From NCBI GenBank assembly GCA_017506865.1, contig JAFCMP010000212.1, positions 1-64,000 on the forward strand: DNA of 64,000 nucleotides. The letters run 5' to 3'. Below, piece after piece: positions 14,690 to 64,000 of the stretch; position 1 is the first letter of the stretch, and every line of letters starts with the position of its first letter. The DNA comes from Tribonema minus. Lineage: Eukaryota; Sar; Xanthophyceae; Tribonematales; Tribonemataceae. The notes below the pieces were generated by a model. It saw only the letters and a list, made by a program, of their open reading frames with translations. It did no database searches and was not told the origin of the DNA. A program made the position numbers and the translations under genes.

Positions 14690-16030
14690 AGGCGGGACGA
14701 GTAGAGTAACTAGAGTACGAGTGCTACTCTACTTTATTGAAATCGAGTAGTGGAGTAGTACTCTATTGAGAGTGGCATTTTTGTGTAGAGTGGTCGAGTA
14801 GCACTCTAGTTGGCAGGCCCTTTTTGAATCGAGTACGAGTAATTACTCCTTCTGAGCTGCCTTTTTGGTGTAGAGTTCGAGTACTTTACTCTAGTGTTCT
14901 CTCTAGTATTCTAGTACACTAGAGTATACTCTACATATTAGAGTACATACTCTTACAAATTGGAGTACATTATAATACATGTTTAAAGAACATATTCTTG
15001 CATTCTTGCAAGCACGTTGTCTACTGCGCAGACAAAGGAGTCCTGAATGCAATGTACTACAGTGGAGGGTGTGCCAAAAAAAAAACGCGCATTTGCTACC
15101 CTGATCTCAGCAAATGGTGACAAATATGCATATGTGCAGCTGCTACATAGACTGCTGTGAACGTCATTAGATCGCAAGCCCTTAAAATTTCAGCATTCTC
15201 AAACTACGCAACAGATACATAGACGAAACCCATCATCGCTGCACAGGCTCAAACAGTGCCAAACAGCTGCAAACAGCTACCGCCTGGCAAGAGCTTTGCT
15301 TCTCTTTGGACTAGTCAGTCACGATGCCTTCATAATCCCAAGGCAAGGCACGATTTGCAGAGGGGGCTTGGACACTGCGACGAGAGTAGAGTATCACCGG
15401 ACTCCTTCTCCAGCTGCTGCCGCTTCTCCACTCTGACGTTATCTAGAGCAATCGGTGTGACGACGCCGCCAGCAGGGAACGCTCTGCGCCTGTTTCCCTG
15501 CAAATCACGTTGGTTCCTGGTTCCTAGACTGGTTCACCACTATCGATGCAGTCGGCACAGCCAAAGGTTCCAGACTGAGCGCAGAAGCCTATTCGGCGTC
15601 CGCGTCGTCAGTGCTAGCGCTGGGTTTTCTACTGTGCCCTCTTCTCTCGAGATCTCGTGCAAGTTGCCAACTTCACGCACGCCAACTTGAAGTATGCGAC
15701 AGTTGAAGTTGGTGCGAGGAGCCTCGGAGGAGGTCGCGGTGAGACGTAATTTGGCCAGTAAGTACTCTTGCTGATTGAGTGACAGAGTGGATTACTCCAG
15801 TTGCATACCCAACGAGTAATAACCACTCTTTCTCACTCTAACTCGACATCAAAGTGTATTTTTGTGATAGAGTAAGAGTAGCCACTCTAATCGCCGCTGG
15901 ATTTTTGAGGGAGTCACGAGTGTGCACTCGTTCCGGCACGGCAAACGTGTGTAGAGTAGGAGTCCACTCCTTGATGGTTACTCACTCTACAACTCTACTC
16001 TATTTACTCTTTCTCACTCGTACGTATGTA
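14690..16030. mobile_element. Candidate fold-back element with GAGTA-rich arms
   Basis: 14,690-14,985 is dominated by GAGTA, TACTC and CTAGAGTA words; 15,755-16,030 carries the same words mostly in the opposite sense (CACTCTA, TACTCTTTCTCACTCG). The outer ends are an imperfect inverted pair: ACGAGTAGAGTAACTAGAG on the left, and the reverse complement of the right end starts TACGAGTGAGAAAGAGTA. About 770 bp of ordinary sequence lies between. No transposase and no clean TSD, so either a fold-back type transposon or two satellite-like blocks. Confidence 0.4.
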
Positions 16031-47591: not shown

Positions 47592-47604
47592 TGTCCAAGT
47601 ACTT
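47592..47604. repeat. Left 13-bp target-site duplication of A2
   Basis: TGTCCAAGTACTT, identical to 53,139-53,151. Removing the element and one copy restores an open frame across the junction, which supports the call. Confidence 0.75.
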
Positions 47605-50600
47605 TATATTAATTCTCGCTCAGGGCGCGAAAAAGCCCAGATGATTGGCATCTAGCTGTAAGGAATCTACATGTCGTATGACAGTCTGAAAGTGTCGGAA
47701 CGACAACCACTCAAACGCCGCCGCCGCCAAATGGCATCTCAGGGTCCTCCCCTACGTCCTCCTCCATGTGCCCCCCCCCCCTGGATTCTGCCATGTGTGT
47801 CATGACACGGCCAGAGTACGCCATGTGGAGCGCTGCCGACAGTGCCGAACGGAAGCGCGCCAGGGCGATGGATGCCCTTAAGAGCTTTAGGGCGCGCTCC
47901 TCCGGGCACTGTCATCCTGCTGGCATACTCCGTCGCCACAGCCTCCAGCAGCTTCCGCCCCTGCTCCCCGATGCTGCCAAATGACCCTATTGCCAAAGTG
48001 GCAAGTTTGTAGCAATTCTGATCATAATGACCAGAATAGTGGGTAGTCTTGGCGGCCTCTTGGTCGCGGCAGCATCGCTCGGGGTCTGCTGCAGTCTTCG
48101 CCGCCCGCGACGCCACCTGTGCCTCGAAGCAGGTAACGTCCACCATGAGCGGTAGGTGGCGTGTCGGGTCGTCGTAGCCGGTCACCGGGAAGGCGTCGGC
48201 AGGCAGCACGATGTCCATCCTGCGACTCCCCGGCGGCCCGGCGGACCCCAGAAACGGCGTGTAGTCCTCGTCCACCAGTCCCGTTTTGAGGTATTGCCGC
48301 AGGATGCGCTGCGTGGCCCTCTTGACGCTATTGTGGGCGATGGTGTCGTGCGCCTTGACGCGTGGCGCTTGACACAGCCGTGCATGCAGGGTGCCGCCCG
48401 GCGACTTCCCGCACAGCTTGCAGCCTGCTGTCTGCTCCTCTACTCCGATGGCGCGTTTGACGGCCAGCTGCCAGGATAGGCCATCGAACGAAGCCGTTGT
48501 GGAGTACATGGGCTCGTTGAGGAATGCCATGCCGATCGAGTGCATGTGGCGCTGCGACCGGAATCGAGCAAGTGCTTGCGTGCGTTGCGTGCCCTGCGGC
48601 AGCTGTTGCAGGTCCGCCTCCACCTTATCTGCAAGCTCGGTAGCGACGGCATCTGCAAGCGCACTCTGATTGGGGCGCTTCAGGCTACACTGCAACTGCA
48701 GAGCACTGGCGTCAAGTACGCAAGCAGCATCCGCACCAGTGCCACCACCTGCTGTCGGCCGCAGCGGCGGCTGCTGCGTAGGTGGTTGCTGCTGCAGTGG
48801 CGTTAGCGCTGGTGGCAGTATATGTTCCAGCTTGTCACTTGTTGCTGCACGTAGAGATGTGGCAGCTGTGGCGATCGTCCGCATGAGGGGCAGGCGCGCC
48901 ACCTCTGCTGCTGCTGCGCCTTGTAGCATTGCTGGTGTGGAACGCGCAGCGCCTGCATTGACGGCTGCCGCTGCTGCGTGCGCTGGTGCTGCAGCTGCGC
49001 CGCCTGCCGTTGCTGCTGCTGCCAGTGGTGTTGCTGCTGCCGCAGGTGTTGGTGCAGCACCTGCCGCATTGGCCGCTGCCACCGCCATTGCCGCTGTCGC
49101 AGCCGGCACGGTTGCGGCGCCGCCTGCCGACGCTGCTCCTGTTGCAGGTGCTGCAGCAGCCCTTAGGCTAGTAGGGCCTGTAGCAGCTGTGTTGCCTATG
49201 CCCGCAGCCGCTGCTGTTGATGCTGCAGTTAGTGATGCCGCCGAGGCCACTTGAGGTGCAACATGTGCTGCCGCTGCTGCAGCACCCTCTGATGCTGGAG
49301 CAGCTGCTGCTGCCGCCGGAGTAGTTGCGCCGTGCGCCGCCGCTGCTGCTGCTGCCGCTGGTGCCGCCTGTGCTGCCGCCGCGGCCCCTGATTCAGCGGC
49401 AGCTGCGTCGTGTGTTGCCGGAATGGCTGCGCCATAAGCGCGGCCAGCCGCTGATGCAGTTGCCGCTGCCGGAGCGGTCGCGCCTCCACTGGCAACCGCC
49501 GCTGCCGCTGTAACAGTTGCCGCTGCTGATGCTGCTGGTGCTGGTGCTGCTGCCGCTGCTGCCGGTGCCGCTTGTGTTGCCGCATCCTCAGCAGCGTTGT
49601 CTGCAGCCGCTTGAGGAGCCGCCTGCTGCAGCACCCCCGCCCATCCAGAGAGTGCTGGTTGCAGCGCTTGCAACGTGCCCGCCACATACGCAGCATCAGC
49701 GATGTCGCAGGCGCTGGTAATGCCAAGGCCGCCATGCCGTGTTGGGAGTCGCGCTTGCCGTAAGGCTGGGCCGTGCGCTGCCAGATGGAAGTGGGCCCCA
49801 CTTTGCTCAAACTGGCGCCAGGTCTGGCCTGGTGGCTGCAGGCCCATTGAGTGCTCAAGCACCCACTGCGTGACCCGATCCCACTCCTTGGCGGCTGGCG
49901 CTGTCTGCGTAGTGGGAATGGTGCGCAGGCAGTACGTCATGCGAGGCACCACGCAGTAGCGCAGTAACCTGAACATAGCCCTCGGATATGTCAGGCGCGC
50001 GCATCGCTCTGCAAATTGAGCCCCTGCCCCGCCTGCACCCGCTTCCCTGCGCAGCCATGCGTCCACAAAGCTGCTGTGGCCCACCGGCACCCCCAGCAAC
50101 ACAGCTCCACGGTTCTGATTTTCATCCGTATCCCCCACTAGCTGAACGCCCAGCTGCTGCAGCAGTTGCTGCTCGTGGTCTGTCACCACATGCCCCCTGC
50201 CAGGCAGCGCGCGTGACTTGGTGAGGTTTAGCTCCAGCCCCACCTCCTCAAAGTGTTGTTTGAGCTGCGCCACCGCCTGTATGTCATCCTGAGTCAGCGT
50301 GCAAGCGCCTGTTCGAACGTTGGCATCGTCCATGTAGGCGCCCATCCGCCTCCGCGCGCGCTGCGCGGCCGCCGCCTCATTGAACCGTTTCAAGCACTGA
50401 GCAATGGCGCCGCAGAAGAGCATCGGTGCCGCGGGGTCCCCCCGCTTAAACCCGCGCTGAGACATGATGATGCGCGTGGAGCCGTCGACGTGCTGGAACA
50501 GCAGGCGTGGCCGAGTGCGAACGTATGTGCCGATGAAGTAGTCGAGGAAGTCCGGAAGCTGTGCTGCTACCCATTCCGCTGCCGCCAGGACAAACACCAT

Positions 50601-53138
50601 GTTGAAGGCATTCTTGAGGTCCAGCATGAACTGCCAGTGACCGAGCTCATACGCGAGTTTGCCGGCCATGGCCGCTTTCTCCGCTCCTGCTGAGACGGCT
50701 ACCCCATACTGCCCGTCTGGCTCAAGGAGCTCCGCCAGGAAGTCTTTGCGGTCTGCCACGTACACCGAAGTGCATAGTCGCTGCAGCACCTCGCCGCAAC
50801 CGATGGGCCGCTGCTTAGCTGTACCATCTTCCTGTTGTTCTGCAAGTGGCGTCAGGCGCCCCGCGCCATGCAACTGCCAGAAGGCATCCGGCAGCCGCGC
50901 AGCCTCCCGCATAACGCCGTTATTAACGGTCTGAGGCCACCGTGTGAGGACAGCAGCAAACTCATGCCGTCCCCAGCTTGTGCGTAGCGCATCCTGCAGG
51001 TGGCTGTAGCGCAGCCCCGATGGGCCTGCTCCACTGTAAGGGCTTGCTCGCTGGATGAGCTTGGCAACTGTCTCTGGCTCAATTCCCTCCCCCTGTAACA
51101 GGCTGAGTTCTGCTGGCATGTTGGCTGCTTTCGCCACAAGCTGATCAACCATGCCGGATAGCTCATGGAGTTGTTCCCCTGGCGCAGCGGGGGGGTGTTT
51201 GGACTGCATGGCGGCAAAGCAGTCATCATCAGGTATCGCCACCGTTTTGGGCTGAAGGAAATGCGCTGCCTGCTGTAGCCCCCCCCGTGTACCCATGCAC
51301 TGTAGGACGTAGGCGTTGATCGCTGCCTCCGTTTGCTGGCGCGCGCGCCAGCGCCGGTACGCACGCGCGTGTGCGAGGAGCGCTGGCACCAACCGGTCAA
51401 GCTCACCGCGTGCCAACATTCTGATTCTGTCGGAGCGAGTGATGCCAGGTGCGCCATCGGTGGAGGTGATGAGTGATGGCATGAGGTGGTGTAGAATCGT
51501 GGATCTTTGCAGTCGCTGCACCCGCCCTGCGGAATCTGGCTCCCGCGCCGCATTGACGAACATCGTCATTGTGTGTGCCAACAGATGTGTTGCTGCGTTC
51601 TCCAGTGCAGCTCCCACATAGCGATGATTGCGTGGTCTAGCAAGGCTTCTAGTTGTCGCGAACTGCAGCTTGCACAGCTCATCGAGGCTGATGCTGTCAA
51701 GCACTGCTGCGACTGCGGGGGTTGAGATGGTCCACGTGAAAAGCCCACCTGCCCCACCTGCTGCGCCTGCAGGGCCTGGCGCTGCCGCTGCTGTCGCCGC
51801 ACCTGCCGCTCTGGGGCCCCCTCCGCCGCCGCCGCGGCCGCCACGACCACAGCCTCGTCCGCCGCTGTCGCTGCTGCGACCGCTGCCACGGCCACCGCGG
51901 CCGTTTTGAGTTCGCGCGCCACTGCCGCTGTTGCTAGCACCGCCGCTGCGGCTGCTGGCATCACTGCTGCGGCCGTTGCCAGCGCCGCTGTCCTTAGTAC
52001 CGGCTGCACTGCCGCCGCCGGCACCGCTGCTGCTGCCGCCTCCGGTTCTGCTGCCGCTAGTCGCTCTGCTACTGCTGATGTCTGCATCATTGCTGCCGCT
52101 GCGAACGCGTCCTCCATTGCCACGTCCGCGCCCTTCACTGCGACCCCGACCCCCTCGTGTAGCACTGCTGCCCCCGCGTTCCGGCCTCTTTGAGCTGCCG
52201 GATGAGCTGCTGCCACCAGCCTGAGCAGCAGGTGCCTGCTGCGCGTGCGCTGGTCCCTTTGCGTAGGGGTTGCCGATGGGTGTGCACGCCGGTTGCTGCT
52301 GTGGCAGCGACGTGGTAGCTGTTGCCGTCGATGCATCAGGTGCTAGCGGTGCTGCTGATGCTGTTGTTGACAATGTTGCCGCCACTGCAGCGGGTGAAGT
52401 GATAGGCCTGCAGTTGCGGCAGTGCTTGCCCGCGCTGGCATCGCTGCTGTCCACTCTGAATGTCTTGTTGGCATGAAACAGGTTTTTGCACAAGGCACAC
52501 TCGGTGTAGATGGTTTGCAAGTGCGAGGTGCTGAGGTCGGAGCGCTCCAGGAACGTTGTTGCTGTCCCACTGTGGTGTTCGCGCTGGTGCTTCGCCGTGA
52601 TGTGGGCGTTTAACCTCTGCTGTAACAAGAGCAGCGACATGCCCTTCTTCACCACGAGGTCGCATAAGTTGCACTTGTACTCCGGGTCCGCACTGCCTCC
52701 ACCTCCAGCTTCGTCGTCTAGCATCAGACGTTGCTGTTCCAGACTGTTATGACCTGTTCTAGAGCGCTTGACTGCACTTTGCTCGCCCGTGTGCTCCCCT
52801 TCGCCTGTTTGATCGGAAATTGACCAACCGTCATTCTGAACCTTCTTGCGTTTGTGCGCTGCGCGTCCGTCTCCAGTTGCTCTGCTGCTGCCACTCGTGC
52901 CATCGTCCTGTTGACAAGCGCCATTGCCATCTGCAGCACTGGTGCTAATATCCTGCGCTTGTGCGCACGCTAGATTGGATTTCTTGCATTTCTGCGCTGA
53001 TTCAGAGTTGGGAATACGGGCCTCCCGCCGCCGCCATGATATTCTTTTCATGATCTCTGCTACGCCATGGTGTTACATGCTACAGCTACATACCTATCCG
53101 CATCTCGTGCTCGTTGTAATGTACATATCCCCAAGCAA
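47605..53138 (-). mobile_element. Full-length RLE-type non-LTR retrotransposon (family A, copy A2)
   Basis: 5.5 kb between 13-bp direct repeats (47,592-47,604; 53,139-53,151). It has a short 5' UTR of about 87 bases, one ORF of 1,770 codons and a 3' UTR ending AATTAATATA, where the tail AAGTAC merges with the duplicated target. Structure (single ORF, N-terminal zinc fingers, RT, Cys-His knuckle, PD-(D/E)XK nuclease) places it with RLE-bearing early-branching non-LTR elements such as R2, NeSL or Utopia-like clades; the exact clade needs a tree. The target is a unique site inside the chromovirus, not rDNA. Confidence 0.85.
47739..53051 (-). CDS. Retrotransposon polyprotein: zinc fingers, reverse transcriptase, restriction-like endonuclease
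   Basis: 1,770 residues. A C2H2 finger (Cys127, Cys130, His150, His155) and a four-Cys finger (185, 188, 211, 214) are followed by a Ser/Gly/Arg-rich, RGG-like stretch (about 275-440). The RT begins near residue 645 (PSGLRYSHLQ, LDLKNAF, KRGDPAAPMLF) with catalytic YMDD encoded at 50,325-50,336. An unusual Ala-rich insert of about 260 residues separates the RT thumb from a C-x2-C-x8-H-x3-C knuckle and the RLE (MDIVL, LMVDVTC, EAAKTTHY). These proteins nick target DNA and prime cDNA synthesis from the nick. The frame has no internal stop, so it may be active. The last residues may be shifted by a G-run: other copies suggest a C-terminus ending ...EMPFGGGGV. Confidence 0.85.
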   Translation of the reverse strand: MKRISWRRREARIPNSESAQKCKKSNLACAQAQDISTSAADGNGACQQDDGTSGSSRATGDGRAAHKRKKVQNDGWSISDQTGEGEHTGEQSAVKRSRTGHNSLEQQRLMLDDEAGGGGSADPEYKCNLCDLVVKKGMSLLLLQQRLNAHITAKHQREHHSGTATTFLERSDLSTSHLQTIYTECALCKNLFHANKTFRVDSSDASAGKHCRNCRPITSPAAVAATLSTTASAAPLAPDASTATATTSLPQQQPACTPIGNPYAKGPAHAQQAPAAQAGGSSSSGSSKRPERGGSSATRGGRGRSEGRGRGNGGRVRSGSNDADISSSRATSGSRTGGGSSSGAGGGSAAGTKDSGAGNGRSSDASSRSGGASNSGSGARTQNGRGGRGSGRSSDSGGRGCGRGGRGGGGGGPRAAGAATAAAAPGPAGAAGGAGGLFTWTISTPAVAAVLDSISLDELCKLQFATTRSLARPRNHRYVGAALENAATHLLAHTMTMFVNAAREPDSAGRVQRLQRSTILHHLMPSLITSTDGAPGITRSDRIRMLARGELDRLVPALLAHARAYRRWRARQQTEAAINAYVLQCMGTRGGLQQAAHFLQPKTVAIPDDDCFAAMQSKHPPAAPGEQLHELSGMVDQLVAKAANMPAELSLLQGEGIEPETVAKLIQRASPYSGAGPSGLRYSHLQDALRTSWGRHEFAAVLTRWPQTVNNGVMREAARLPDAFWQLHGAGRLTPLAEQQEDGTAKQRPIGCGEVLQRLCTSVYVADRKDFLAELLEPDGQYGVAVSAGAEKAAMAGKLAYELGHWQFMLDLKNAFNMVFVLAAAEWVAAQLPDFLDYFIGTYVRTRPRLLFQHVDGSTRIIMSQRGFKRGDPAAPMLFCGAIAQCLKRFNEAAAAQRARRRMGAYMDDANVRTGACTLTQDDIQAVAQLKQHFEEVGLELNLTKSRALPGRGHVVTDHEQQLLQQLGVQLVGDTDENQNRGAVLLGVPVGHSSFVDAWLRREAGAGGAGAQFAERCARLTYPRAMFRLLRYCVVPRMTYCLRTIPTTQTAPAAKEWDRVTQWVLEHSMGLQPPGQTWRQFEQSGAHFHLAAHGPALRQARLPTRHGGLGITSACDIADAAYVAGTLQALQPALSGWAGVLQQAAPQAAADNAAEDAATQAAPAAAAAAPAPAASAAATVTAAAAVASGGATAPAAATASAAGRAYGAAIPATHDAAAAESGAAAAAQAAPAAAAAAAAHGATTPAAAAAAPASEGAAAAAAHVAPQVASAASLTAASTAAAAGIGNTAATGPTSLRAAAAPATGAASAGGAATVPAATAAMAVAAANAAGAAPTPAAAATPLAAAATAGGAAAAPAHAAAAAVNAGAARSTPAMLQGAAAAEVARLPLMRTIATAATSLRAATSDKLEHILPPALTPLQQQPPTQQPPLRPTAGGGTGADAACVLDASALQLQCSLKRPNQSALADAVATELADKVEADLQQLPQGTQRTQALARFRSQRHMHSIGMAFLNEPMYSTTASFDGLSWQLAVKRAIGVEEQTAGCKLCGKSPGGTLHARLCQAPRVKAHDTIAHNSVKRATQRILRQYLKTGLVDEDYTPFLGSAGPPGSRRMDIVLPADAFPVTGYDDPTRHLPLMVDVTCFEAQVASRAAKTAADPERCCRDQEAAKTTHYSGHYDQNCYKLATLAIGSFGSIGEQGRKLLEAVATEYASRMTVPGGARPKALKGIHRPGALPFGTVGSAPHGVLWPCHDTHGRIQGGGAHGGGRRGGP

Positions 53139-53337: not shown

Positions 53338-54414
53338 TAATACCTAGCCCCCATGATTTCTGGGCCAGAAACTTTAAGCAACTCTGCAGTGGGCACCCCC
53401 CTAAACTGCCGGACCCCCTGTGGCAACTTGTATTTGCCCCCCGCAAGCCTAACTGTAGGCCCCCCGCCATTGGCGCGCTGCCGCGCCTGCCGCAAGCGCC
53501 CCTGCACAACTGATGTGCCGCCGTCAGCAAGCGCCACGCCCGCAGCGTTCGCCGTGTTCCAGTACTCCGTCGTTGCGTGCTCGCACGCGTCAAGGAGACT
53601 GGCCGCCTCCCAGGTATCCGCCACGTGCGCGCCCTCCCAGCGCACCAGATACTGTGACTCCCCCGGCCTCCCCCTGCGGTCCCGCACAACCCTGTGCCCC
53701 ACCACCGCTTCCACTCCTTGCCGATCCGACGCCCACGTCACGTCGTCCTCCGTGACCGATCGCGGCGCCGGCGCCGCGAGCGGATTCCTGCTGAGCAAGT
53801 AGCGCACGTAGCCCTCAGGCAGCCCCACGGGCTTGCCGCTCGCTCCGCTAGGGTCACGACACAGCTTGATACGCCACATCGTGACCCGAGTAGGACCGCC
53901 GTCCATCTCCAGCAGCACCACGTTTGATTGCACCAGCATATCCCCGTGATACACTGGCCCAACCGCTATGACCTTGTAAGGCCCCACCCACTGATCTAGC
54001 ATCTTCCTGCTGAGCACTGCGCGCCACGTGGCGCCGTGCTCCGTACTAGAAGTTGCCGTGTGCGTGATGGGCTTAGAGTGTACCCACACGAGATCGCCCC
54101 GCTCCGGCTCGCTGCACAAGTTGAAAGCGCGCGAGCGCCGCGTTGCCGCGCATGATGCGCTCGCGCTTGAGCTCCGCGCGCCTGTGCAGCATCGCCATGG
54201 CGGACGCCTGCCGCCCCTGCATCTCCGCGAGAATTGCGCAGGTGCTGTCGCTGGCGCGCCGCTCGCTCCCCTCTGCAACCTGCCCCAAAATGGTGTGGAG
54301 CGCTACCCGCGGCTCCCTCCCCATCACCAGCAAGAACGGCGAGCAGCCGCGCTCGCGGTTCGAGTGTGAGTTGTGCGCGAAGGCGACGTGGTTGATCCAC
54401 CGATCCCAGTCGCT
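53337..54414 (-). pseudogene. Integrase C-terminal region, GPY module and chromodomain
   Basis: Directly after the TAG the same frame reads SDWDRWINHVAFAHNSHSNR and SPFLLVMGREPR, the end of the integrase core. A shift near 54,130 leads to SEPERGDLVWVHS, the GPY-type module DQWVGPYKVIAVGPV, and a chromodomain, VVGHRVVRDRRGRPGESQYL then WEGAHVADTWEAASL, at about 53,700-53,560. Chromodomains bind methylated histone H3 and steer integration to heterochromatin. Of the aromatic cage, Tyr (QYLVRW) and Trp (DTWE) are visible. The ORF ends in TAA at 53,337, overlapping the ATG of a further ORF (TAATG). Confidence 0.8.
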
Positions 54415-55260
54415 CTAAGCGCTGCTCACCGCCATCGCCAGCATCTGCGCGAGCGACTTCATGAAGCGCTCCGCCTGGCCGTTCGCCTGTGGATGGTACG
54501 CCGCGGTGTATAGCTTGCGGACTCCATGAGCGCGTACACCTCGCGCGCCACCTCCGCCGTGTACTGCGACCCCCGGTCGCTGAGCAGCGAGTGTGGCATG
54601 CTGTAGAGCGTGCTGTACTCGTCCACCAGTAGCTCTGCCGCCCGCACCGCTGTGTTCTCCCCCTCCCGCACCGCGTACACTGCGACGTGTGACGTCAGCA
54701 GGCACATGAATACGTGCACGTACATGCTGCCGCTGGCCGAAACTGGCAGCGGCCCGAAGCAGTCCGTTGAAACCGTGTGTAATGGGTGCGGTGGTAGCTC
54801 CCTGTAGATGGTGGGCATGCGCACGCGCTGGCCGCTGCCCTTGCGCGCCTGGCACGGCCAGCAGTGTTCCACCCAGTGAGTGACTGAGACGCTCCATCCC
54901 GGCCACCACCCATGGCGCTGCACCAGCTCCTTGCTCCTCCTAACCCCCTGATGCCCCGCCCACACCTCCCCGTGCAAGCAGTGAAGCACCTTGTCGCGCA
55001 GCGCGAGCGGTATGACAAGCACGGCGTCGCCGAGCTCGCCGTCAAGTCCGCATTCGCGCCGGCGCAGCAGCTTCACCCCCGCAGCCCACTCCAAGCTGCA
55101 CACCTCCCTATGCTTCTTGACAAGAGCCAGCAGCTCCTTGTCGCAGGGAAGGGCAGTAGCGTCCCCGCAGTAGGAGATCATGGCGCTGCAGAAGGGATCT
55201 GCATCTTGGGCTGCGCGCCAGTCCGCCGCCGTCATGGCGCCGAGCGTGCGCGAGTCAGTG
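54415..55260 (-). pseudogene. Chromovirus integrase: HHCC zinc-binding domain and DDE core
   Basis: The frame from 56,018 continues into LLALVKKHREVCSLEWAAGV and the HHCC module (LHGEVWAGHQGV ... HCWPCQARKG; H-x6-H-x29-C-x2-C). The core supplies the first two acidic residues, VSTDCFGPLP (Asp at 54,764) and LLSDRGSQYT (Asp at 54,578). A one-base shift near 54,525 moves the third, YHPQANGQAERF (Glu at 54,469-54,471), to the next frame, which then meets TAG at 54,415. Integrase inserts the element's cDNA; as read this copy cannot make the whole enzyme. Confidence 0.8.
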
Positions 55261-56720: not shown

Positions 56721-57795
56721 TCATCGCGGCCGCGACGCGCGCCGCGCGGTCTGACGAGCCAGGCGCCGTCGCTGCGGCGTCGGCCACGCGGTACGCCTCC
56801 ACGAGCTCGTCAGCCGCTTCCTCCGCTGCATCTGCTGCCGTTGCTGGTATGGGTTGCGACTAAAGCCGTCCGCGTTGCCGTTCCGCGTGCCCTCCTTGTA
56901 CCGTATGGTATGCGGGAATGCCCCCAAGAACTCAAACCACCTCGCCAGCCGCGCCGTCTTGTCATTGCAGCTCTCGAGCCACAGGAGCGCGCGATGGTCG
57001 GTGTCGATGATGAACGGCGTACCCCACAGCAGATGCCGAAACTTCTTGACCCCAAACACCACCCCGAACGCCTCCAGGTCCGTGGTGGTCCAGTTGCGCT
57101 GGTGCTTAAGCGTCGCGCGGCTGGCAAACGCGATGGGGTGCTCCACCCCCGCCGCGTCCGCCTGCGACAGCACCGCGCCAAAGCCGAGCTTCGACGCGTC
57201 CGTGGCTAAGATGAACGGCCGCGTGCCGTCGCCGGCGGCTGCGTGGTCTAGGAAGGTCATCAGCGCGTGTAACGACAGCGCCGTGCTGACCTCCTCCAGC
57301 GCCGCCAGCTGCGCCTCCCCCATGTGAAAGGGCACGTCCTTCGCCATCAGTGCCGTCAGCGGCGCGATGACTTCCGCCATCCCCTTGACAAACCGCCTGT
57401 AGTAGTTCGCCAGCCCCAGCCAGCTGCGCAAGGCGGAAATGTCCTCCGGCACCGGCATCTGCATGAGTGCAGTGACCATGTCAGGGTCAGGCCGGATGCC
57501 GCCAACTTCAACTATATGCCCCAGGAACTTGATGCGCGTGCAGCCGACGTGCATCTTCGCTGGCGCCAGCTTGATGCCGTGCTCGCGCATACGCAGCATG
57601 AGCGCGTGTAGGTCGTCGAGGTGCGTGTCAACGTCCGGCGAGTGCACGATGACGTTGTCGATGAAGGACTGCGCGCGCTCGATGCCCTGCAGCACGATCT
57701 CCATCAGCCGCGTGAAGTGGCCCGGCGCGCCGGCAGCGCCCTGCGGGCAGCGCGTCCACTCGATAGGCCGAATGACGAGGCCATGGCGGTGAGCG
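56721..57795 (-). pseudogene. Chromovirus reverse transcriptase C-terminal half and RNase H
   Basis: Starts in frame at IEWTRCPQGAAGAPGHF. The active-site box is FIDNVIVHS rather than F/YxDD: the second Asp is Asn (AAC at 57,654-57,656), again at a former CpG. RT connection motifs follow (IKFLGHIVEVGGIRPD, SWLGLANYYRRFVKG). RNase H is complete, with FILATDASKLGFGAVLSQ, TDLEAFGVVFGVKKFRHLLW, FIIDTDHRALLWL and the closing GNADGFSR. The last 40 codons are out of frame. RT is probably inactive here; RNase H residues look sound. Confidence 0.8.
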
Positions 57796-58560
57796 GCACT
57801 GCTGCTGCGTCGATCGCCGACACGAAGAACGCGCCGCTGATGTTGATGCCGAGGTAGAGTCGCGCGCCGCCGAGGGAGTTGAAGATGTCCTCGATCAAGG
57901 GCAGCGACACCTTGGGGATGATGCTCATGGCGTTGAGCTTCCTGAAGTTGACCGTGATGCGCGCCGTGCCGTCGGGCTTCATCACGCCCACCACCGGAGA
58001 GCTCCACTCTGACTGTGAGGGGCGTATGATGCCTGCCGCCAGCAGCTTGTCTACCTCCACGCGGATGAGCGCTGTTATCTGGGGGCTGTACCGGTACGGC
58101 CGGTCTGCCACCGGGTGCGCGCCGTCGCGCAGCGCGATGCGGAAAGGCAGCGTGGTGCAGTACCCCAGGTCCCACTTGTCCTTAGAGAAGTCGTCGGCGA
58201 AGAGCGCGAGCTCGAACGCCAGCCGCGCCACTTGGTCCGCTGACCACCCCCCTATTTGCACGTTCACCTTCAGCAGGTGAGGTGCGAGTTGCTGACGTGC
58301 CGACGCTAGCACTGCCGCCACCGCCGGGTCGTCGCTGACCACCTCGCCGAGCGGAGCCTCGAGCTTCTCCGCCGGCGGCATGCTTTCAAACAGCCCCATG
58401 AATGCCCCCACGTGCAGCAGCGTCGCCGCTTGCTGCTCCGTGCCGTCAACCTCCACGCCGAGGGCCAGCGCAGCGGCGCACACCATCAAGGGTGTCGCGC
58501 GCCGCCGCGCGGCCGGCGAGAGCACCGGCGCTAGTTGCGCCCGCAATTGACGTTTCAGGC
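57704..58560 (-). pseudogene. Chromovirus reverse transcriptase, N-terminal half
   Basis: Contains PVADRPYRYSPQITALIRVE, LLAAGIIRPSQSEWSSPVVG and ITVNFRKLNAMSI, standard Ty3 RT fingers and palm. The first catalytic Asp (usual form LDLxxGF) is Asn here: LGINISGAFF, codon AAC at 57,842-57,844. The next plus-strand base is G, so the change is CpG to TpG. The frame then leaves the RT (SSFGLSSGRA); the correct continuation (EWTRCPQGAAGAP) is in another frame, so a frameshift lies near 57,780. Confidence 0.8.
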
Positions 58561-59516
58561 GCGCACGCGTTTCGCTCGCCTCCGCGTCCGAGCGCCGTAT
58601 TAGTTGCGCCGCCCGCGGCGCCGGCCTCTGCAGCGGCGTCGCTGTGATCCGCCACCACGGCGGTGCGTCGTGCCGCGACGTCTGAGGCAGTCCTGTGCCC
58701 AGCCGCAGCGGCAGTAGCGGTGCTGCGCGTGCCCGCGCGCGCGCCGCCAGCGCCGCCGCCGCTTGGCCCATCGGTAGCGCCCGTGCCGCCGTCGCGCCGC
58801 TCCGCAGCGGCAGCAGCGGCAGTGGCGGCATCGCGCGAGCCCGCGCGCGCGCCGCCAGTGCCGCCGCCGCCCAGTCCAGCGGCAGCACGCGTGCTGCCGC
58901 CGCGCTCTCCAGCTGCAGCAGCAGCGGCAGCGGCGGCGTCGCGCGAGCCCGCGCGCGCGCCGCCAGCGCCGCCGCCGCTAAGCTCAGCGGCAGCACCCAT
59001 GCTGCCGCCGCGCCCTCCCGCCGCAGCAGCAGCGGCAGCGGCGGCGTCGCGCGAGCCCGCGCGCGCGCCGCCAGCGCCGCCGCCGCTAAGCTCAGCGGCA
59101 GCACCCGTGCTGCCGCCGCGCCCTCCCGCCGCAGCAGCAGCGGCAGCAGCAGCGTCGCGCACGCCCGCGTGCGCGCCGCCAGTGCCGCCGCCGCTTAGCC
59201 CTGCGGCAGCGCTCCTGCTGCGCTCCCCCTCCGTGGCCGCAGCGGTAGCAGCAGCGTCGCGCACGCCCGCGTGCGCGCCGCCAGTGCCGCCGCCGCTCAG
59301 CTCAGCGGCAGCACCCGTGCTGCCGCCGCGCTCTCCCACCGCGGTAGCGGCGGCGATGTCGTCGCCGCTCTCTGCTGCGGCAGCGTCGCGCACGGCTGTG
59401 CGCGCGTCGTGCGCGACGTCGCGATGCCACATCTTGATGTAGCGCTCCATGTGTGCGGAGCCCCCCTCCGCGCCTATAGAGCCCCCCTTGCTCCGCTCAG
59501 CGTGCGCCGCACGCAC
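58446..59516 (-). other. Ala/Gly-rich minisatellite linker between methyltransferase and RT
   Basis: About eight degenerate units of roughly 110-120 bp, open for 356 codons in one frame (GERGGSTGAAAELSGGG, TGGAHAGVRDAAAAAAA). The frames of the flanking domains contain stops here (TGA at 59,297; TAA near 59,195), so a frameshift on each side is implied. The unit resembles the second linker at 55,580-55,830. Confidence 0.6.
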
Positions 59517-62500
59517 CTGTGCGAGCCCCTGCGCATGATGTCGCAGAAGCCGCCGTCGTAGGGGATTGGCGCGCCGCCGCTGCGCGCCCCCCTCGTGGCA
59601 GCAGCGGCGGCAGCGGCGCCGCGCGCAGCCGTGTGCACGTCGCGCTCGCCGCCGCCCACCCCCAAGTTCAACCTCCGCCTATCGGCCATGTGGCGCGTAA
59701 ACTGGAGGACAGGCGCCGAGGCGCCCACCTCCGTGCTGTACCGCGCCGCGCCCTCCGCAATGCTCAAGCTGTAGTGCTCCTCTGCATCAATGAGCGGCTC
59801 CCGCCAAGCCGCCCTGTACGCCATGTACATCTCGTTGTCTGCCGCCGCTAGCGCCGCCAGCGCACGGTCCACCGCGACGCTCGCCTCAACTCGCCAGGGG
59901 TTGCGCGTCTCGCGGCCGCGCAGCTGCGCTTGCCGCACTGACACCGGCTCCAAGCGCGCCGCCAGCGCGTCAAGAATCTCCCCCTGCTGCTGGTCGCTGA
60001 GGAGCTCCGTTGCTGCGGCCCCCCGCGTGCGCTGCTCTCCCGCCAAGTGCAGCGCGCCCGCTCTGAACAGAGCCTCCCACACGTACCGCGACATGCGCGG
60101 CGGCACCGCGTTGGCAAGCATGCGCATGCTGTCGCTGCGCGCGCCCTGCGCCGGCTCCGGCCAGTCGTAGCCCTCTAACGTGCTAACTTGCAGCAGCTGC
60201 TGCCACGTGAGATGGCGCGCCGCCGCCACCTCCGCAGGGAGCTCCGTTGCGTTGCGCGCATTATGCCTCAGCACGCCGCTGCCGCCGTCGGAGCCGCTGT
60301 AAGGCAGCCGTAGGCACGAGCTGCGCAGCGTGGGGCATGGCTGCCGCGTGGATAGTATCTCCGGCGCCGCCACGTTGCGCGCGCAGAAGCGGTAGAACGG
60401 TACCTCCTGAGCGCTGACGCCGGTCGCCTCCGCGACGCTGCAGTACCCCTCTACCCCCCTCTCGGCCGCCAGAAGCGTCTGCAGCCGAGCATGTACCCCC
60501 GCCCAATCCGCTGCGTCTTCCTCCGCCAGCCCGCTGCCCGCGGGGCGCCCCCGCGTCAACACTAGGAAGACGCGCCGCCGCATAGTGGGTAGGCCGCAAT
60601 CGTCGCCCGTGACGACGTGGTGGCTGAAGCTGAAGCCCAGCGCGCGCGCGGCAGCAAGTGTGTGCTGCCATTGCGGCGTGGACATGAAACCAAGAACGTT
60701 CTCCAGAACGGTCATGCGCAGCGATGGAATCGCCGCGTGTACCAGCAGCATGCTGAGCACGCATTGCCAGCCCTCGTGCGTTTCCCGCTTGCCTGCTTGG
60801 CTGAAATGTGTGCAGGGCGGCCCGCCAAGCCCCACCTCCACCCCCAGCCGCGTCGCCTCCGTGATGAGCGCCAGCTGCACCCCCCGCTCGTTGGCGTCCC
60901 CCTGAATCACCCGCGCCGCGGGGTGATTGCGCGCGTAAAGCGCGCGCGCGCTCTGGCTGAAGTCCGTAGCCAGAGCCGTGTCTAAGTACTCCTTGACTCC
61001 GTGCGTGAACCCCCCCGCTCCGCAGTACATCTCCATCGCCACGGGCTTGCGCAGCCGCGCCAGGCATGGATTGCCGTCCGCGTCGTAGGGGAGCTCCTCC
61101 GCAGGAGTCTCCAGCATGCCCAAGGCACGCCCCACCGCGGCGCCTGGCCGCAGTCTCACGTCCCCCCCTAGAGAGTGCAGCACTACAGGCACCGAACCGT
61201 CCGGCGTGAGCTCCGCCAGCAGCCTGTCCGCCGCTAGCTCGGGGTGCCGCACGCGCACCTCCACGCGCATGCCCGCGTGCGCGCCAGCGTCCGTGGGCCG
61301 CACCGGCGTCTTGCCGTCCGCATGGCATATGCGTATGCTGACCCAGCGCGGCCGGTCGCCGCCGACGTCCGCCGTGCGCGCCGCCACCGCTACCCACTGC
61401 TCAGCAGGATCCCCCCCTGCCGCCACTCTGAGGGTCGGCACGACCTCGTGCGCCGACCCTCTGGACGCCAGCGCCATCGGCTTGTGGCCCGCAAGGAAGT
61501 GCAGGTCCACCGTGCCAGTGTGCTCGCCTTGGCGCTGGTCGACGTTGTGGAGCGAGATGACGTCCCCTCCTAGCAGCATGGGGACCCCCAAGTTAGGCAC
61601 CACGAGGAAGATCCACGTGAGCTTTACTGGTGTGTGGGGTCTTGCCGCGTGGAAGGTGACGCTCAGCGTGGCTGTCTTGTGGACGCGCGTGCTCCCCTTG
61701 GCGAGGTCGAATCCCGTAAGGATGCGCGGGTGCTCCATGATGTGTATGGAGTCGGGGTCGATGGAGCCGTCGTCCAACAGCCGCTTCACGAGCGCGCCGT
61801 CGACGCACGATGCGCCGCAGCCTGTGTCGTACGAGCTGCCGCGAATTTTGGGTGGTGGCCGATGTTGAAGTTGTCGTCGAGCGTTGACGACGAAGTCGAA
61901 CAGCATCTTGGCTCCGCCGTGGCACGTGATGGTGCCAGGTCGTAGTCCTCGTTGCTGGTGCGATGCTGCGCCAATGCGCAGCGCTCGCAATTCTTCCATT
62001 TCCTGCACATGTGCGATGTTGAGCTTGCGCTCTGCAGGGTCAAGGTGAGTCTCACTATGCAACGCTGAAATGAAGGGGTCAGCGTGAGTGACATTGTGGT
62101 GAACTGATGTCGCTGGGGGGTCGTTATTGCCCTCGGCGGCGGGTTTCCAGTCTTTCCAAACATCAACTCTGTTGGCTGAGGTTGCATGGTTTGAGTCAGA
62201 GTCAGAGTCGTCACATTCGCTCTCGCTAGTGTACGCTCCCGCAAATTCATCGTCGCTAAAATCAGGTGCTGCTGTGGGCGCCTGAGGTCCCTCCCCCCCT
62301 TCAGAGAGAGTGCTGCGCCCCTGCGCAGCCTGCGAGATAAGATCACTATTAGCGTCGTTCTCTACGTCAGATTCGTCCGCCCACGACACCCTATGCCGTT
62401 CAGTGTTAAGTGTTGTTGCAGCGGCGCCCGCGCCGCTACCATGTCGCGTCACTGCATGTGACTCATCAGCAGTTGAAGTCGAACTTGCTGGGGGGGTCGC

Positions 62501-62689
62501 AGCGCTTCCTGCGGCGAGCCCCTGATTATCAGTTGAAGTTGAAGTTAGTGCAGCTATGCGCTCGCGCTTTCGCTGCCGCGCGCGCGTACTCGGCGCTGCG
62601 TCGGCCTTCGTACTACGTCTACTCTCTACGCCTATGCCCTCCCTCTTTGCTTCCCCGGGGACGGGAGCGTTGTCCCCCGGGTCGCCCCC
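59474..62689 (-). CDS. Aspartic protease and C5-cytosine DNA methyltransferase region of Pol
   Basis: Uninterrupted frame of over 1,070 codons; residues are numbered from the GTG codon at 62,452. An acidic N-terminal stretch leads to the protease: SYDTGCGAS (Asp209) and VPMLLGGDVI (Asp297 region), the usual DTG and LLG-x-D elements. The methyltransferase spans about 470-795 (61,045-60,070): motif I MEMYCGAGGF, motif IV GGPPCTHFSQAG with nucleophile Cys547, motif VI LENV (Glu584), motif VIII TMRRRVFLV, and motif X ANAVPPRM. Between VIII and X lies a target-recognition-type stretch. It would transfer methyl from S-adenosylmethionine to cytosine C5. All catalytic residues are present. A helical tail and an Ala/Arg/Gly-rich linker follow, to TAG 59,474. 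No host DNMT accessory domain (BAH, RFD, PWWP) is visible. Confidence 0.88.
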   Translation of the reverse strand, partial: GGDPGDNAPVPGEAKREGIGVESRRSTKADAAPSTRARQRKRERIAALTSTSTDNQGLAAGSAATPPASSTSTADESHAVTRHGSGAGAAATTLNTERHRVSWADESDVENDANSDLISQAAQGRSTLSEGGEGPQAPTAAPDFSDDEFAGAYTSESECDDSDSDSNHATSANRVDVWKDWKPAAEGNNDPPATSVHHNVTHADPFISALHSETHLDPAERKLNIAHVQEMEELRALRIGAASHQQRGLRPGTITCHGGAKMLFDFVVNARRQLQHRPPPKIRGSSYDTGCGASCVDGALVKRLLDDGSIDPDSIHIMEHPRILTGFDLAKGSTRVHKTATLSVTFHAARPHTPVKLTWIFLVVPNLGVPMLLGGDVISLHNVDQRQGEHTGTVDLHFLAGHKPMALASRGSAHEVVPTLRVAAGGDPAEQWVAVAARTADVGGDRPRWVSIRICHADGKTPVRPTDAGAHAGMRVEVRVRHPELAADRLLAELTPDGSVPVVLHSLGGDVRLRPGAAVGRALGMLETPAEELPYDADGNPCLARLRKPVAMEMYCGAGGFTHGVKEYLDTALATDFSQSARALYARNHPAARVIQGDANERGVQLALITEATRLGVEVGLGGPPCTHFSQAGKRETHEGWQCVLSMLLVHAAIPSLRMTVLENVLGFMSTPQWQHTLAAARALGFSFSHHVVTGDDCGLPTMRRRVFLVLTRGRPAGSGLAEEDAADWAGVHARLQTLLAAERGVEGYCSVAEATGVSAQEVPFYRFCARNVAAPEILSTRQPCPTLRSSCLRLPYSGSDGGSGVLRHNARNATELPAEVAAARHLTWQQLLQVSTLEGYDWPEPAQGARSDSMRMLANAVPPRMSRYVWEALFRAGALHLAGEQRTRGAAATELLSDQQQGEILDALAARLEPVSVRQAQLRGRETRNPWRVEASVAVDRALAALAAADNEMYMAYRAAWREPLIDAEEHYSLSIAEGAARYSTEVGASAPVLQFTRHMADRRRLNLGVGGGERDVHTAARGAAAAAAATRGARSGGAPIPYDGGFCDIMRRGSHRCVRRTLSGARGAL
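60070..61045 (-). other. C5-methyltransferase domain, complete
   Basis: Domain limits within the Pol frame, given separately because it is the main discovery candidate. The order I-IV-VI-VIII-X is canonical, not permuted. Motif IV has Thr where most enzymes have Gln or Asn after Pro-Cys. The length of about 325 residues fits a bare catalytic domain. Confidence 0.88.
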
Positions 62690-63502
62690 CTATGGGCGCC
62701 TCCTAGTAGGGTACTTGTCGTTCATGCGCTGCTTGAAGTAATCCCTGCGGTCAGGTCTGGGCGACGAATCCAGCCAGTCCTGCCACACTTGGTTCATAAA
62801 ATCGTAGTGGGCTTCCGTTTTGGCCATGCCCCTCTTGCCTGCATTAGCTTTTTGAACAACTGCGTTGTAGGGATTTTTATAAAATACTTTGCAGCAATGA
62901 CCAACATGTCCCTTTCCGTTACAGTTTGTGCAAACGACTTCCTTCATCCACTCTAAAGTGTCGTTGCTCCCCTGCCCTTCCTTCATCATGTAATTGATTC
63001 GAGTTGGCCGGAACCTCTCCCTCGGGGTGCCCGCGGGCATTGCAGGCCTGCCCGCAGGCGTGCCGCCAGCTGGCGCCCTACTACTTTCTCGCTTTACTAC
63101 CAGTGGGGGGTACCCCCCGCCCCCTCTGCCATCGTCTAGAGGGTTGTATGGCGCGGCGGTGTGCGCCTGCGCCGCCCTCTCATTTCGCACCGCGTTCACA
63201 ATCTGCATCAGTGTGATGGGGTACGGCCCCTTAGTGTGCAGCCTGTAGTCAGGGTTGAGGAGTATCCTGTCACACAGCGGCTGCAATGCTGTCCACGTGC
63301 CTTTAAAGAAGTTGAGCAGGGGGACATGCATTCTCCATTTGTACACGTTGTCATCAGCAGGCACGTGTGCCTCTGCCTGCTGGATCAATTGCGTTATGGG
63401 TGACAGCGTGTCGCGTAGCGCGACGCCAACTTCAACTCTTAGCAGCTCCACCTGCATTACAAAGAGTCCTGGGTTAGCCACGTACACCACATCCGTCAAG
63501 GT
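62690..63502 (-). CDS. Chromovirus Gag, C-terminal part with CCHC zinc knuckle
   Basis: In frame with the previous segment. Contains VVCTNCNGKGHVGHCCKVFY, a C-x2-C-x4-H-x4-C nucleocapsid knuckle at 62,891-62,932, which packages RNA. Preceded by a helical region (FFKGTWTALQPLCDRILLNP) and a Pro/Gly-rich linker. Ends at TAG 62,690-62,692; the downstream pol frame is the same frame, so the layout is Gag-TAG-Pol. There is no ATG at the upper end; the first codon after the TAG is ACC. Confidence 0.75.
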   Translation of the reverse strand, partial: TLTDVVYVANPGLFVMQVELLRVEVGVALRDTLSPITQLIQQAEAHVPADDNVYKWRMHVPLLNFFKGTWTALQPLCDRILLNPDYRLHTKGPYPITLMQIVNAVRNERAAQAHTAAPYNPLDDGRGGGGYPPLVVKRESSRAPAGGTPAGRPAMPAGTPRERFRPTRINYMMKEGQGSNDTLEWMKEVVCTNCNGKGHVGHCCKVFYKNPYNAVVQKANAGKRGMAKTEAHYDFMNQVWQDWLDSSPRPDRRDYFKQRMNDKYPTRRRP

Positions 63503-64000
63503 CTACTCGAAGATCTTGAGGCAGAGGTTGTCCGGCATCCCCCGAGCAGCATTGTCTTTGGCAGTTTCCAGCGCACTGTCTAAGGTCATGCTCATATCAC
63601 TAGCGATTTTGGCATGTTCGGGTGAGTAGGTGCTGAAATACCCCCTGATGAAGGTTGAGTAAGCAACAACCACCTCGAATTGCATGTCAGCCTCAGTATA
63701 GATCTTCTCTACTTGATCCGTACGCTTGCGCGAGTTGTATTGTGCGAGTTGAGTGTGGCACGCCTGCTCAAGTAGCCTACGAGTCGTCTTGAAAAACTCT
63801 AATGGCCATGCGGGGTCCTTCTGGTAGTCACGGGGGGGACAGAACAGGTTAGGCGGCTTCTTGCTGGAGTTGAAGTCCACCCAGTACCGGTTACCAGAGG
63901 TCCTAGGGACCCAGTGGCCAGCTGCTGCGTGCGCAAGAGCGGACGCACCGGATGATAGTGAGCCTACCGTACTCGCTGAGTCATCCGTTGAGGGGTCCGA
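63503..64000 (-). CDS. Chromovirus Gag, N-terminal part (cut by window edge)
   Basis: The frame is open from the window edge to TAG at 63,503-63,505. Reads RYWVDFNSSKKPPNL, PLEFFKTTRRLLEQACHTQL and ADMQFEVVVAYSTFIRGYFS, helical and capsid-like, with no recognised motif. The same frame goes on directly after the TAG, so this stop probably interrupts Gag. Confidence 0.6.
   Translation of the reverse strand, partial: SDPSTDDSASTVGSLSSGASALAHAAAGHWVPRTSGNRYWVDFNSSKKPPNLFCPPRDYQKDPAWPLEFFKTTRRLLEQACHTQLAQYNSRKRTDQVEKIYTEADMQFEVVVAYSTFIRGYFSTYSPEHAKIASDMSMTLDSALETAKDNAARGMPDNLCLKIFE

What the first reader, a model, noticed from the sequence alone, without database searches (positions are those of the whole stretch)
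59474..62689. A chromovirus that carries its own cytosine DNA methyltransferase
Seen: one uninterrupted frame holds a retroviral-type aspartic protease (SYDTGCGAS, VPMLLGGDVI) followed by a complete C5-methyltransferase (EMYCGAGGF, GGPPCTHFSQ, LENV, TMRRRVFLV, ANAVPP), and RT, RNase H, integrase and a chromodomain follow on the same strand. Known: capture of DNMTs by retrotransposons has been reported for dinoflagellate and charophyte elements; I know of no described chlorophyte chromovirus with one. Inference: the element could methylate its own cDNA or its insertion site. Together with a chromodomain, which recognises methylated histones, this would link targeting to silent chromatin with writing of DNA methylation.
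Basis: partly seen in the sequence, partly recalled or inferred. Interest (0 to 1): 0.93.

Follow-up and report, generated by a model that had tools for sequence, protein, structure and literature searches.

The report
Jumping genes carrying DNA-methylating enzymes
A yellow-green alga's genome holds well over a hundred virus-like jumping genes that carry a bacterial-type enzyme for chemically marking DNA, built into three different places of their protein chain, which makes the alga a natural test of why a jumping gene would write the mark that usually silences it.

Summary
Window 62689-59474 (minus strand) is one open frame with a DTG protease motif and a complete C5-cytosine methyltransferase (MTase). 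RT, RNase H, integrase and chromodomain follow on the same strand in broken frames, so this copy is dead. The host is not a chlorophyte: the contig matches Tribonema minus (Xanthophyceae). It is no misassembly: 61 of 75 related MTase loci have a related RT downstream, and six copies hold MTase and chromodomain in one 2936-codon frame.

Beyond the finding, the sampled Ty3/gypsy lineages carry an MTase at three polyprotein positions: after Gag (type B), between protease and RT (A, D/E), and between RNase H and integrase (F). The enzymes are nearest to a mainly alphaproteobacterial class and match no DNMT3, unlike the published Klebsormidium and Symbiodinium DIRS captures. They are under purifying selection (dN/dS about 0.2, rough). 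Seventeen of 18 keep the catalytic cysteine; lineage E has lost it. Single capture followed by spread is favoured, not proven. Methylation of the element's own cDNA is the likeliest role (inferred; no CpG depletion of the elements was seen). Chromovirus membership could not be settled. New variant of a known kind.

The parts
62690..64000 (-). Gag-like frames with a CCHC zinc knuckle (CTNCNGKGHVGHCC); run beyond the window end
   Evidence: open frames 63503-64000 and 62690-63499; no Pfam hit for 62693-63499; knuckle read by eye
62690..62692 (-). in-frame TAG between Gag and Pol; also TAG at this junction in A1 C340, A2 C66 and A3 C75 (4 of 4 type A copies checked)
59474..62689 (-). open frame protease-MTase, 1071 codons and stop
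61556..61834 (-). putative aspartic protease core (SYDTGCGAS ... VPMLLGGDVI); lower bound approximate; no Pfam hit
   Evidence: motif at 61834; same block in relatives
60020..61057 (-). C5-cytosine methyltransferase domain; motif I 61036, IV 60826, VI 60706, X 60118
   Evidence: Pfam DNA_methylase; motifs
58592..59398 (-). Ala-rich linker made of a decayed direct repeat (start-to-start 102-108 bp, 6 copies)
57215..58140 (-). reverse transcriptase, frame-broken (N-terminal motifs in frame 0, FIDN block in frame 2); bounds approximate
56916..57224 (-). RNase H (RT_RNaseH, E 7e-34)
54837..55013 (-). integrase H2C2 zinc domain
54459..54791 (-). integrase core (rve, 27 bits, below the cut-off of 32.6), frame-broken at its end
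53556..53714 (-). chromodomain
   Evidence: Pfam Chromo

Best explanation
The window holds a decayed member (lineage A3) of a large group of Tribonema minus Ty3/gypsy LTR retrotransposons that carry a C5-MTase domain of bacterial type inside the Gag-Pol polyprotein. SHOWN: linkage, copy number, three positions, catalytic motifs kept in 17 of 18 sequences, purifying selection, a chromodomain on type A, and one element (C340) with open Gag and Pol frames and 212-bp LTRs. INFERRED: the protease frees the MTase (or an MTase-RT/IN fusion) inside the particle, where it methylates cytosines of the double-stranded cDNA during or just after reverse transcription, so the copy enters the nucleus already methylated. 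This would shield it from sensing or cutting of foreign unmethylated DNA and set its chromatin state at insertion; in type A the chromodomain would steer integrase to modified histones. INFERRED: one capture from a bacterial or phage-type enzyme, then spread among Gypsy lineages by recombination, as one enzyme clade sits at three positions.
For: At least 123 PF00145 matches, all listed ones over the cut-off, 123 of 378 candidates scored; the top four (L001-L004) are not of element type. 61 of 75 type A MTase loci have a type A RT downstream on the same strand within 6 kb. 19 elements were seen with MTase and RT linked (listed in the full report). Pfam gives MTase before RT in B and D, and RT-RNase H-MTase in F. 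Motif IV Cys in 17 of 18 and ENV in 17 of 18. MTase dN/dS 0.19-0.24 in 4 of 4 pairs, against 0.55 for Gag of one pair. C340: TG..CA LTRs 99.06% identical over 212 bp, a putative PBS beginning TGG two bases after the LTR, and a purine tract. All 17 TE MTases in the tree on one side of a branch (94/83), next to a mainly alphaproteobacterial group with viral contig L048. DIRS-encoded DNMTs methylate CG de novo in yeast (PMC5890265, parts 1-4 of 7 read).
Against: No CpG depletion in the elements: window element CpG o/e 1.12, against 0.53-0.87 in the thirteen 4-kb blocks of 1-52000. The CpG/GpC transition-rate ratio between copies is 1.56-2.13 in 4 sets, but TpA is higher than CpG in all 4. Lineage E keeps a domain without its catalytic loop in a 3452-codon frame. 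Several lineages lack the Pro of the PC motif (SSC, PSC, SNC, TRC). In the same yeast test the Klebsormidium Gypsy and the Symbiodinium LINE enzymes gave no methylation, judged inconclusive (PMC5890265). One-origin support is unresolved when DNMT2 and L001/L002 are included. The RT tree does not join the four lineages to the exclusion of Ty3. No methylome or expression data were available.
Confidence: 0.55

Rival explanations
1. The domain acts without catalysis, as a DNA- or RNA-binding or structural module; catalysis is being lost.
For: Lineage E (C33) keeps the domain in a 3452-codon frame but lacks motif IV; variable residue before the Cys in B2b, B7, D, F_C509.
Against: Cys and ENV kept in 17 of 18 sequences although the types are only about 21-30% identical; dN/dS about 0.2.
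Confidence: 0.2
2. The enzyme methylates RNA (the element's RNA or its tRNA primer), like DNMT2.
For: The best solved relatives by profile are DNMT2 tRNA methyltransferases for both families (about 4e-14, 56 bits).
Against: Bacterial enzymes score higher: Rhizobium L116 104.5 bits with an A profile and 135.8 with a B profile (profiles rebuilt locally, so a rough comparison). The 45.3 bits of T. minus DNMT2 with B come from a 196-residue fragment and understate it. The best Foldseek hits are DNMT1 (from a model good only over the catalytic half).
Confidence: 0.12
3. The enzyme acts in trans on host or viral DNA (host-wide methylation or antiviral defence), and the host profits.
For: Proposed for transposon methylases in PMC6338049 (passages); very high copy number; the window outside the element is mildly CpG-poor (0.53-0.87) with TpG and CpA in excess, which host-wide methylation could cause.
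Against: No sign of domestication was seen: the type A, B, D, E and F MTases opened lie in element polyproteins; the element itself is not CpG-poor.
Confidence: 0.1
4. Host MTase gene joined to a retroelement by misassembly.
For: None found.
Against: 61 of 75 linked loci; equally long 2936-codon frames with MTase and chromodomain in C13, C291, C309, C340, C388 and C551; type B polyproteins also in ENA proteins P0006/P0007.
Confidence: 0.01

Closest known systems
KnitGypsy-Dnmt3 of Klebsormidium nitens (PMC5890265, parts 1-4 of 7 read)
   Same: Gypsy retrotransposon with a C5-MTase inside the Pol polyprotein, purifying selection, catalytic residues kept
   Different: That enzyme is DNMT3; the A and B profiles here match no DNMT3 chain at E 10. 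The paper gives it a DIRS-like repeat layout; the C340 element has plain LTRs. Chromodomain, three positions and a stramenopile host are further differences
SymbioDIRS-Dnmt3 and SymbioLINE-Dnmt of Symbiodinium (PMC5890265)
   Same: Hundreds of retrotransposon MTases in one genome; two domain orders in DIRS; orphan (non-DNMT3) enzyme in the LINE
   Different: DIRS and LINE elements, not Ty3/gypsy; no sequence of theirs could be compared here
Chromodomain and Tudor Gypsy elements of Ectocarpus, with a Tudor homolog in T. minus (PMC12477816, passages read)
   Same: Stramenopile Gypsy elements with C-terminal chromatin readers
   Different: No C5-MTase is mentioned in the passages found; the MTase there is a 4mC/6mA type in a Sola1 DNA transposon
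Alphaproteobacterial C5-MTases (Rhizobium L116, Shinella L115, Oricola L156) and viral contig L048
   Same: Nearest enzymes by profile score and tree
   Different: Not part of retroelements as far as read (only L048's neighbours were read); 25-27% identity to the A alignment

Membership tests
Ty3/gypsy LTR retrotransposon | RT-RNase H nearest to Ty3 | tested here: met
   A2 RT: Ty3 4ol8 E 2e-61, next kind 8r0s 'Enzymatic polyprotein' 7.5e-37, other chains 5e-35 and weaker
Ty3/gypsy LTR retrotransposon | order Gag-PR-RT-RH-IN | tested here: met
   types A, B, D/E, F. The protease is a motif reading in A, D/E and F; in B Pfam finds it only below its cut-off (C34, P0006, P0007)
Ty3/gypsy LTR retrotransposon | LTRs, PBS, polypurine tract | tested here: met
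   C340 (A1) only. No LTR pair found for the window copy; no matching target-site duplication seen at C340; the PBS was not matched to a tRNA
Chromovirus | chromodomain at the integrase C-terminus | tested here: met
   window E 2.4e-8, A2 C66, 84 Chromo matches in the genome, not all in elements
Chromovirus | RT inside the chromovirus clade | tested here: inconclusive
   only Ty3 could be added as a reference; polytomy
C5-cytosine DNA methyltransferase | motifs I, IV (catalytic Cys), VI (ENV), VIII, X | tested here: met
   window has all five; 17 of 18 sequences keep Cys and 17 of 18 keep ENV; motif X is loose in B, C, D, E and F
C5-cytosine DNA methyltransferase | methyl transfer to DNA | not testable with these tools
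   needs the protein
DNMT3 (as in KnitGypsy-Dnmt3) | nearest to DNMT3/DRM | tested here: not met
   no DNMT3 chain at E 10 with either profile
Host DNMT1/DNMT2/DNMT5 copy | groups with a host DNMT | tested here: inconclusive
   a 196-residue DNMT2 fragment of T. minus joins the TE side by an open, long-branch fork; host DNMT5/DNMT4 sequences and DNMT1 were not in the trees

The most novel reading that the evidence does not exclude
A bacterial- or phage-derived C5-MTase was captured once by a stramenopile Ty3/gypsy element and became a near-standard module of this alga's Gypsy elements, moving between three places in the polyprotein and across lineages as distant from one another as from yeast Ty3. 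In type A (and perhaps B, with its Tudor-like tail) writer and chromatin reader travel in one polyprotein; in lineage E the writer has died but its domain is kept.
Probability: 0.5. Interest if true: 0.88.

Novelty: new variant of a known kind. Interest (0 to 1): 0.76.

Why it matters
Transposons are usually the victims of cytosine methylation. An alga whose Gypsy elements repeatedly keep a methyltransferase, at three protein positions, with versions that look live and one that looks dead, gives natural replicates for the question left open in 2018 of what the enzyme does for the element. If the origin is bacterial, elements take epigenetic enzymes not only from the host. A polyprotein with a DNA-methylation writer and a histone reader would tie target choice to chromatin marking.

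Tried and rejected
Misassembly or captured host gene: rejected. Chlorophyte host: rejected. An LTR pair for the window copy: none found between 62.6-70 kb and 40-54.5 kb. MTase relatives of A1 among polyprotein-length proteins: none at E 0.001. An MTase-less Gypsy lineage in this genome: none met. C352, C75, C15, C33, C62 and C59 (the loci opened) were in neither MTase match list, yet all six had the domain. C224 (F-like) was cut before the expected place; C517, C401 and others were not opened, so 'near-standard' is not established. CpG depletion as a sign of self-methylation: not seen. Structure of the type B tail: mean pLDDT 48.7, not used for a fold search. MTase model: mean pLDDT 51.4, good only over the catalytic half. 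Bacterial relatives of L048: none found. A viral-contig scan with the B alignment gave one weak locus, L105, not followed. 18S search for the host: not answered, not needed.
Full report
What is there. Window positions 62689-59474 (minus strand) form one open frame of 1071 codons. It holds a DTG protease block and a Pfam DNA_methylase domain of 68.9 bits with motifs I, IV, VI, VIII and X intact. A Gag-like frame with a zinc knuckle (read by eye) lies before it, separated by an in-frame TAG; A1 C340, A2 C66 and A3 C75 have TAG at the same junction. After an Ala-rich repeat linker come RT, RNase H, integrase and a chromodomain on the same strand, spread over three frames; the RT catalytic pair reads FIDN. 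This copy is therefore dead as a retrotransposon, though its protease-MTase frame is open.

Host. The protein P0001 (JKP88DRAFT_245261, Tribonema minus) lies on a contig of 1,118,699 bases, the length of C212, of which the window is bases 1-64000. T. minus is a xanthophyte stramenopile, not a chlorophyte. A paper reports DNMT5, HELLS, CDCA7 and a DNMT4-like protein in it (PMC10538959, passages).

Not a misassembly. The genome (158 Mb, 554 contigs) has at least 123 PF00145 matches, a lower bound since 123 of 378 candidates were scored; the four best (L001-L004) are not element enzymes: L004 looks like DNMT2 and L001-L003 are single-frame genes. A search with the C84 MTase gave 101 pieces, of which 17 full-length ones, the query included, show 100% identity as rounded. 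Merged, these are 75 loci; 61 of 75 have a type A RT downstream on the same strand within 6 kb, and 61 of 86 type A-like RT loci have such an MTase upstream. The 25 RT loci without one include 5 lineage D loci, of which the one opened (C15) has its own MTase, and C75, which has a frame-broken MTase; the other 19 were not opened. Six contigs hold MTase and chromodomain in one 2936-codon frame.

An element with LTRs. At C340 the LTRs lie at 2188-2399 and 14710-14920, 99.06% identical, TG...CA, with TGGTTCCCGAGTACGA two bases after the 5' LTR and a purine tract before the 3' LTR; a second element begins at 15682. Its Pol frame has a canonical ILWDTGASVTAI protease motif at residue 626, before the MTase at 867. 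No matching target-site duplication was seen.

More lineages, three positions. Type A: PR-MTase-RT-RH-IN-chromo. Type B: Gag-zinc motif-MTase-PR-RT-RH, with IN in the same frame where the stretch reached it (C23, C34, C69, and by the same order C4, C352 and C62), with at least 126 matched pieces in the genome. Type D/E: PR-like motif, MTase, RT (C15, C33; in C59 MTase-RT). Type F: RT-RH-MTase, then integrase in the next frame (C509, C112). The protease is a motif reading in A, D/E and F (C224); in B Pfam finds it below its cut-off in C34, P0006 and P0007. MTase and RT were seen linked in 19 elements: C84, C340, C66, window, C550, C75, C4, C23, C34, C69, C352, C62, C15, C33, C59, C509, C112, P0006 and P0007. 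C204 (B3) and C312 (C) were not checked for RT, and C224 was cut before the MTase place. P0006 and P0007 are type B polyproteins from ENA. Their RT is 71-72% identical to B2, an identity that no row of the capped T. minus list shows, so they probably come from another genome.

Catalysis and selection. The motif IV Cys is kept in 17 of 18 sequences and ENV in 17 of 18; E (C33) lacks the motif IV loop and reads ENA. In the genome 27 further RNase H matches score within 0.2 bits of C33's; only C33 was opened, so the abundance of E is an inference. The residue before the Cys varies (PPC, APC, SPC, TPC, SSC, PSC, SNC, TRC). NG86 dN/dS of the MTase is 0.225 (A1-A2), 0.193 (window-C550), 0.208 (B2a-B2b) and 0.242 (B1-B4), with dS 1.3-2.1 and so rough. 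RT of A1-A2 gives 0.122, PR of B2a-B2b 0.070 and Gag of B2a-B2b 0.553; RT dS was saturated in the two B pairs.

Relations. Profiles of A and B against solved chains give DNMT2 (about 4e-14), then DNMT1 for A and M.HhaI for B; no DNMT3 chain appears at E 10. Bacterial enzymes score higher: Rhizobium L116 has 104.5 bits with A and 135.8 with B (local profiles). Trees: with viral outgroups the 17 TE MTases lie on one side (87/86); with bacterial outgroups and without six rows, 94/83, 92% of bootstraps, next to a group (99/96) of ten Pseudomonadota rows, one Latescibacterota row and viral L048. With DNMT2 and L001/L002 included the fork is open and two changes are needed. The RT tree gives A, B, D/E and F each 100, but their order is unresolved with Ty3. 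RT identities: A-D/E 34-37%, A-B 27-34%, F to the rest 25-30%; to Ty3, A 29-31%, B 32-36%, D/E 36%, F 26-30%. DNMT1, 3, 4, 5, 6, SymbioLINE and KnitGypsy sequences were not in the trees.

Methylation traces. CpG o/e is 1.12 in the window element, 0.53-0.87 in the thirteen 4-kb blocks of 1-52000 and 0.70-1.01 in the other element stretches. The CpG/GpC transition-rate ratio between copies is 1.75, 1.92, 2.13 and 1.56, with TpA higher than CpG in all four sets. This neither shows nor excludes light methylation.

Known work. Retrotransposon C5-MTases are known: SymbioLINE-Dnmt, SymbioDIRS-Dnmt3 and KnitGypsy-Dnmt3, the last inside Pol of an LTR Gypsy; DIRS enzymes were active on CG in yeast, the LINE and KnitGypsy ones not, judged inconclusive (PMC5890265, parts 1-4 of 7 read). 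The same paper credits two earlier reports of rare MTase-RT links. The 2025 survey (PMC12344493, one section and passages) does not contain the word Tribonema in its main text. The stramenopile DNMT survey PMC9998398 (passages) has no hit for Tribonema or Xanthophy. PMC6338049 (passages) says in general terms that DAM- and DCM-encoding Gypsy and DIRS elements occur in stramenopiles, red and green algae and charophytes. Searches of the held library listed no report of MTase-bearing Gypsy elements in Tribonema or another xanthophyte; most subscription papers, supplements and preprints were not searchable.

Mechanism. Most likely the enzyme methylates the element's cDNA before integration. Steps shown: domain, linkage, constraint. 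Steps inferred: release by the protease, packaging, substrate, benefit. Lineage E, whose domain lacks the catalytic loop, is the strongest evidence against a universal catalytic need.

Noticed in passing
window 47739-53051 (minus): A 1770-codon open frame with an RT (RVT_1 E 3e-9), zinc-finger-like C/H motifs by eye and no other Pfam hit: probably a non-LTR element next to the Gypsy. The stretch 47600-49318 and window 11821-13550 both match the flank of the C84 element at 97%.
   Followed up: partly
L034, L033, L035, L044, L106: Type B proteases of T. minus read D-C-G, D-N-G or D-P-G at the active site instead of D-T/S-G, while P0006, P0007 and C62 (L112) have DSG or DTG.
   Followed up: partly
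L047:1548-3002, L044:7858-9225, P0006 3049-3084: Type B C-termini carry a chromo-like stretch (by eye) and a Tudor-like stretch: Pfam PTM_DIR17_Tudor E 0.0028, 0.00015, 0.0074 in 3 of 4 scanned, not in P0007; all below cut-off.
   Followed up: partly
L001, L002, L003 (C223, C181): The three best PF00145 matches of the genome are 367-390 codon single-frame MTases of another kind; L002 and L003 are 97% identical over 3.4 kb, so the gene lies in a duplicated or mobile segment.
   Followed up: partly
L111 (C33): Lineage E: 3452-codon frame, MTase domain without its catalytic loop: probably a retained dead enzyme.
   Followed up: partly
C311:6595-7950: An open frame of 6208 codons contains a type B RT.
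   Followed up: no
B2a against B2b (L034, L033): RT-RNase H is 90% identical while the MTase is 63% and Gag 47%: the MTase changes much faster than RT.
   Followed up: yes
L045 (C312): A further MTase type (C), also in L014 and L016; its link to an RT was not checked.
   Followed up: no
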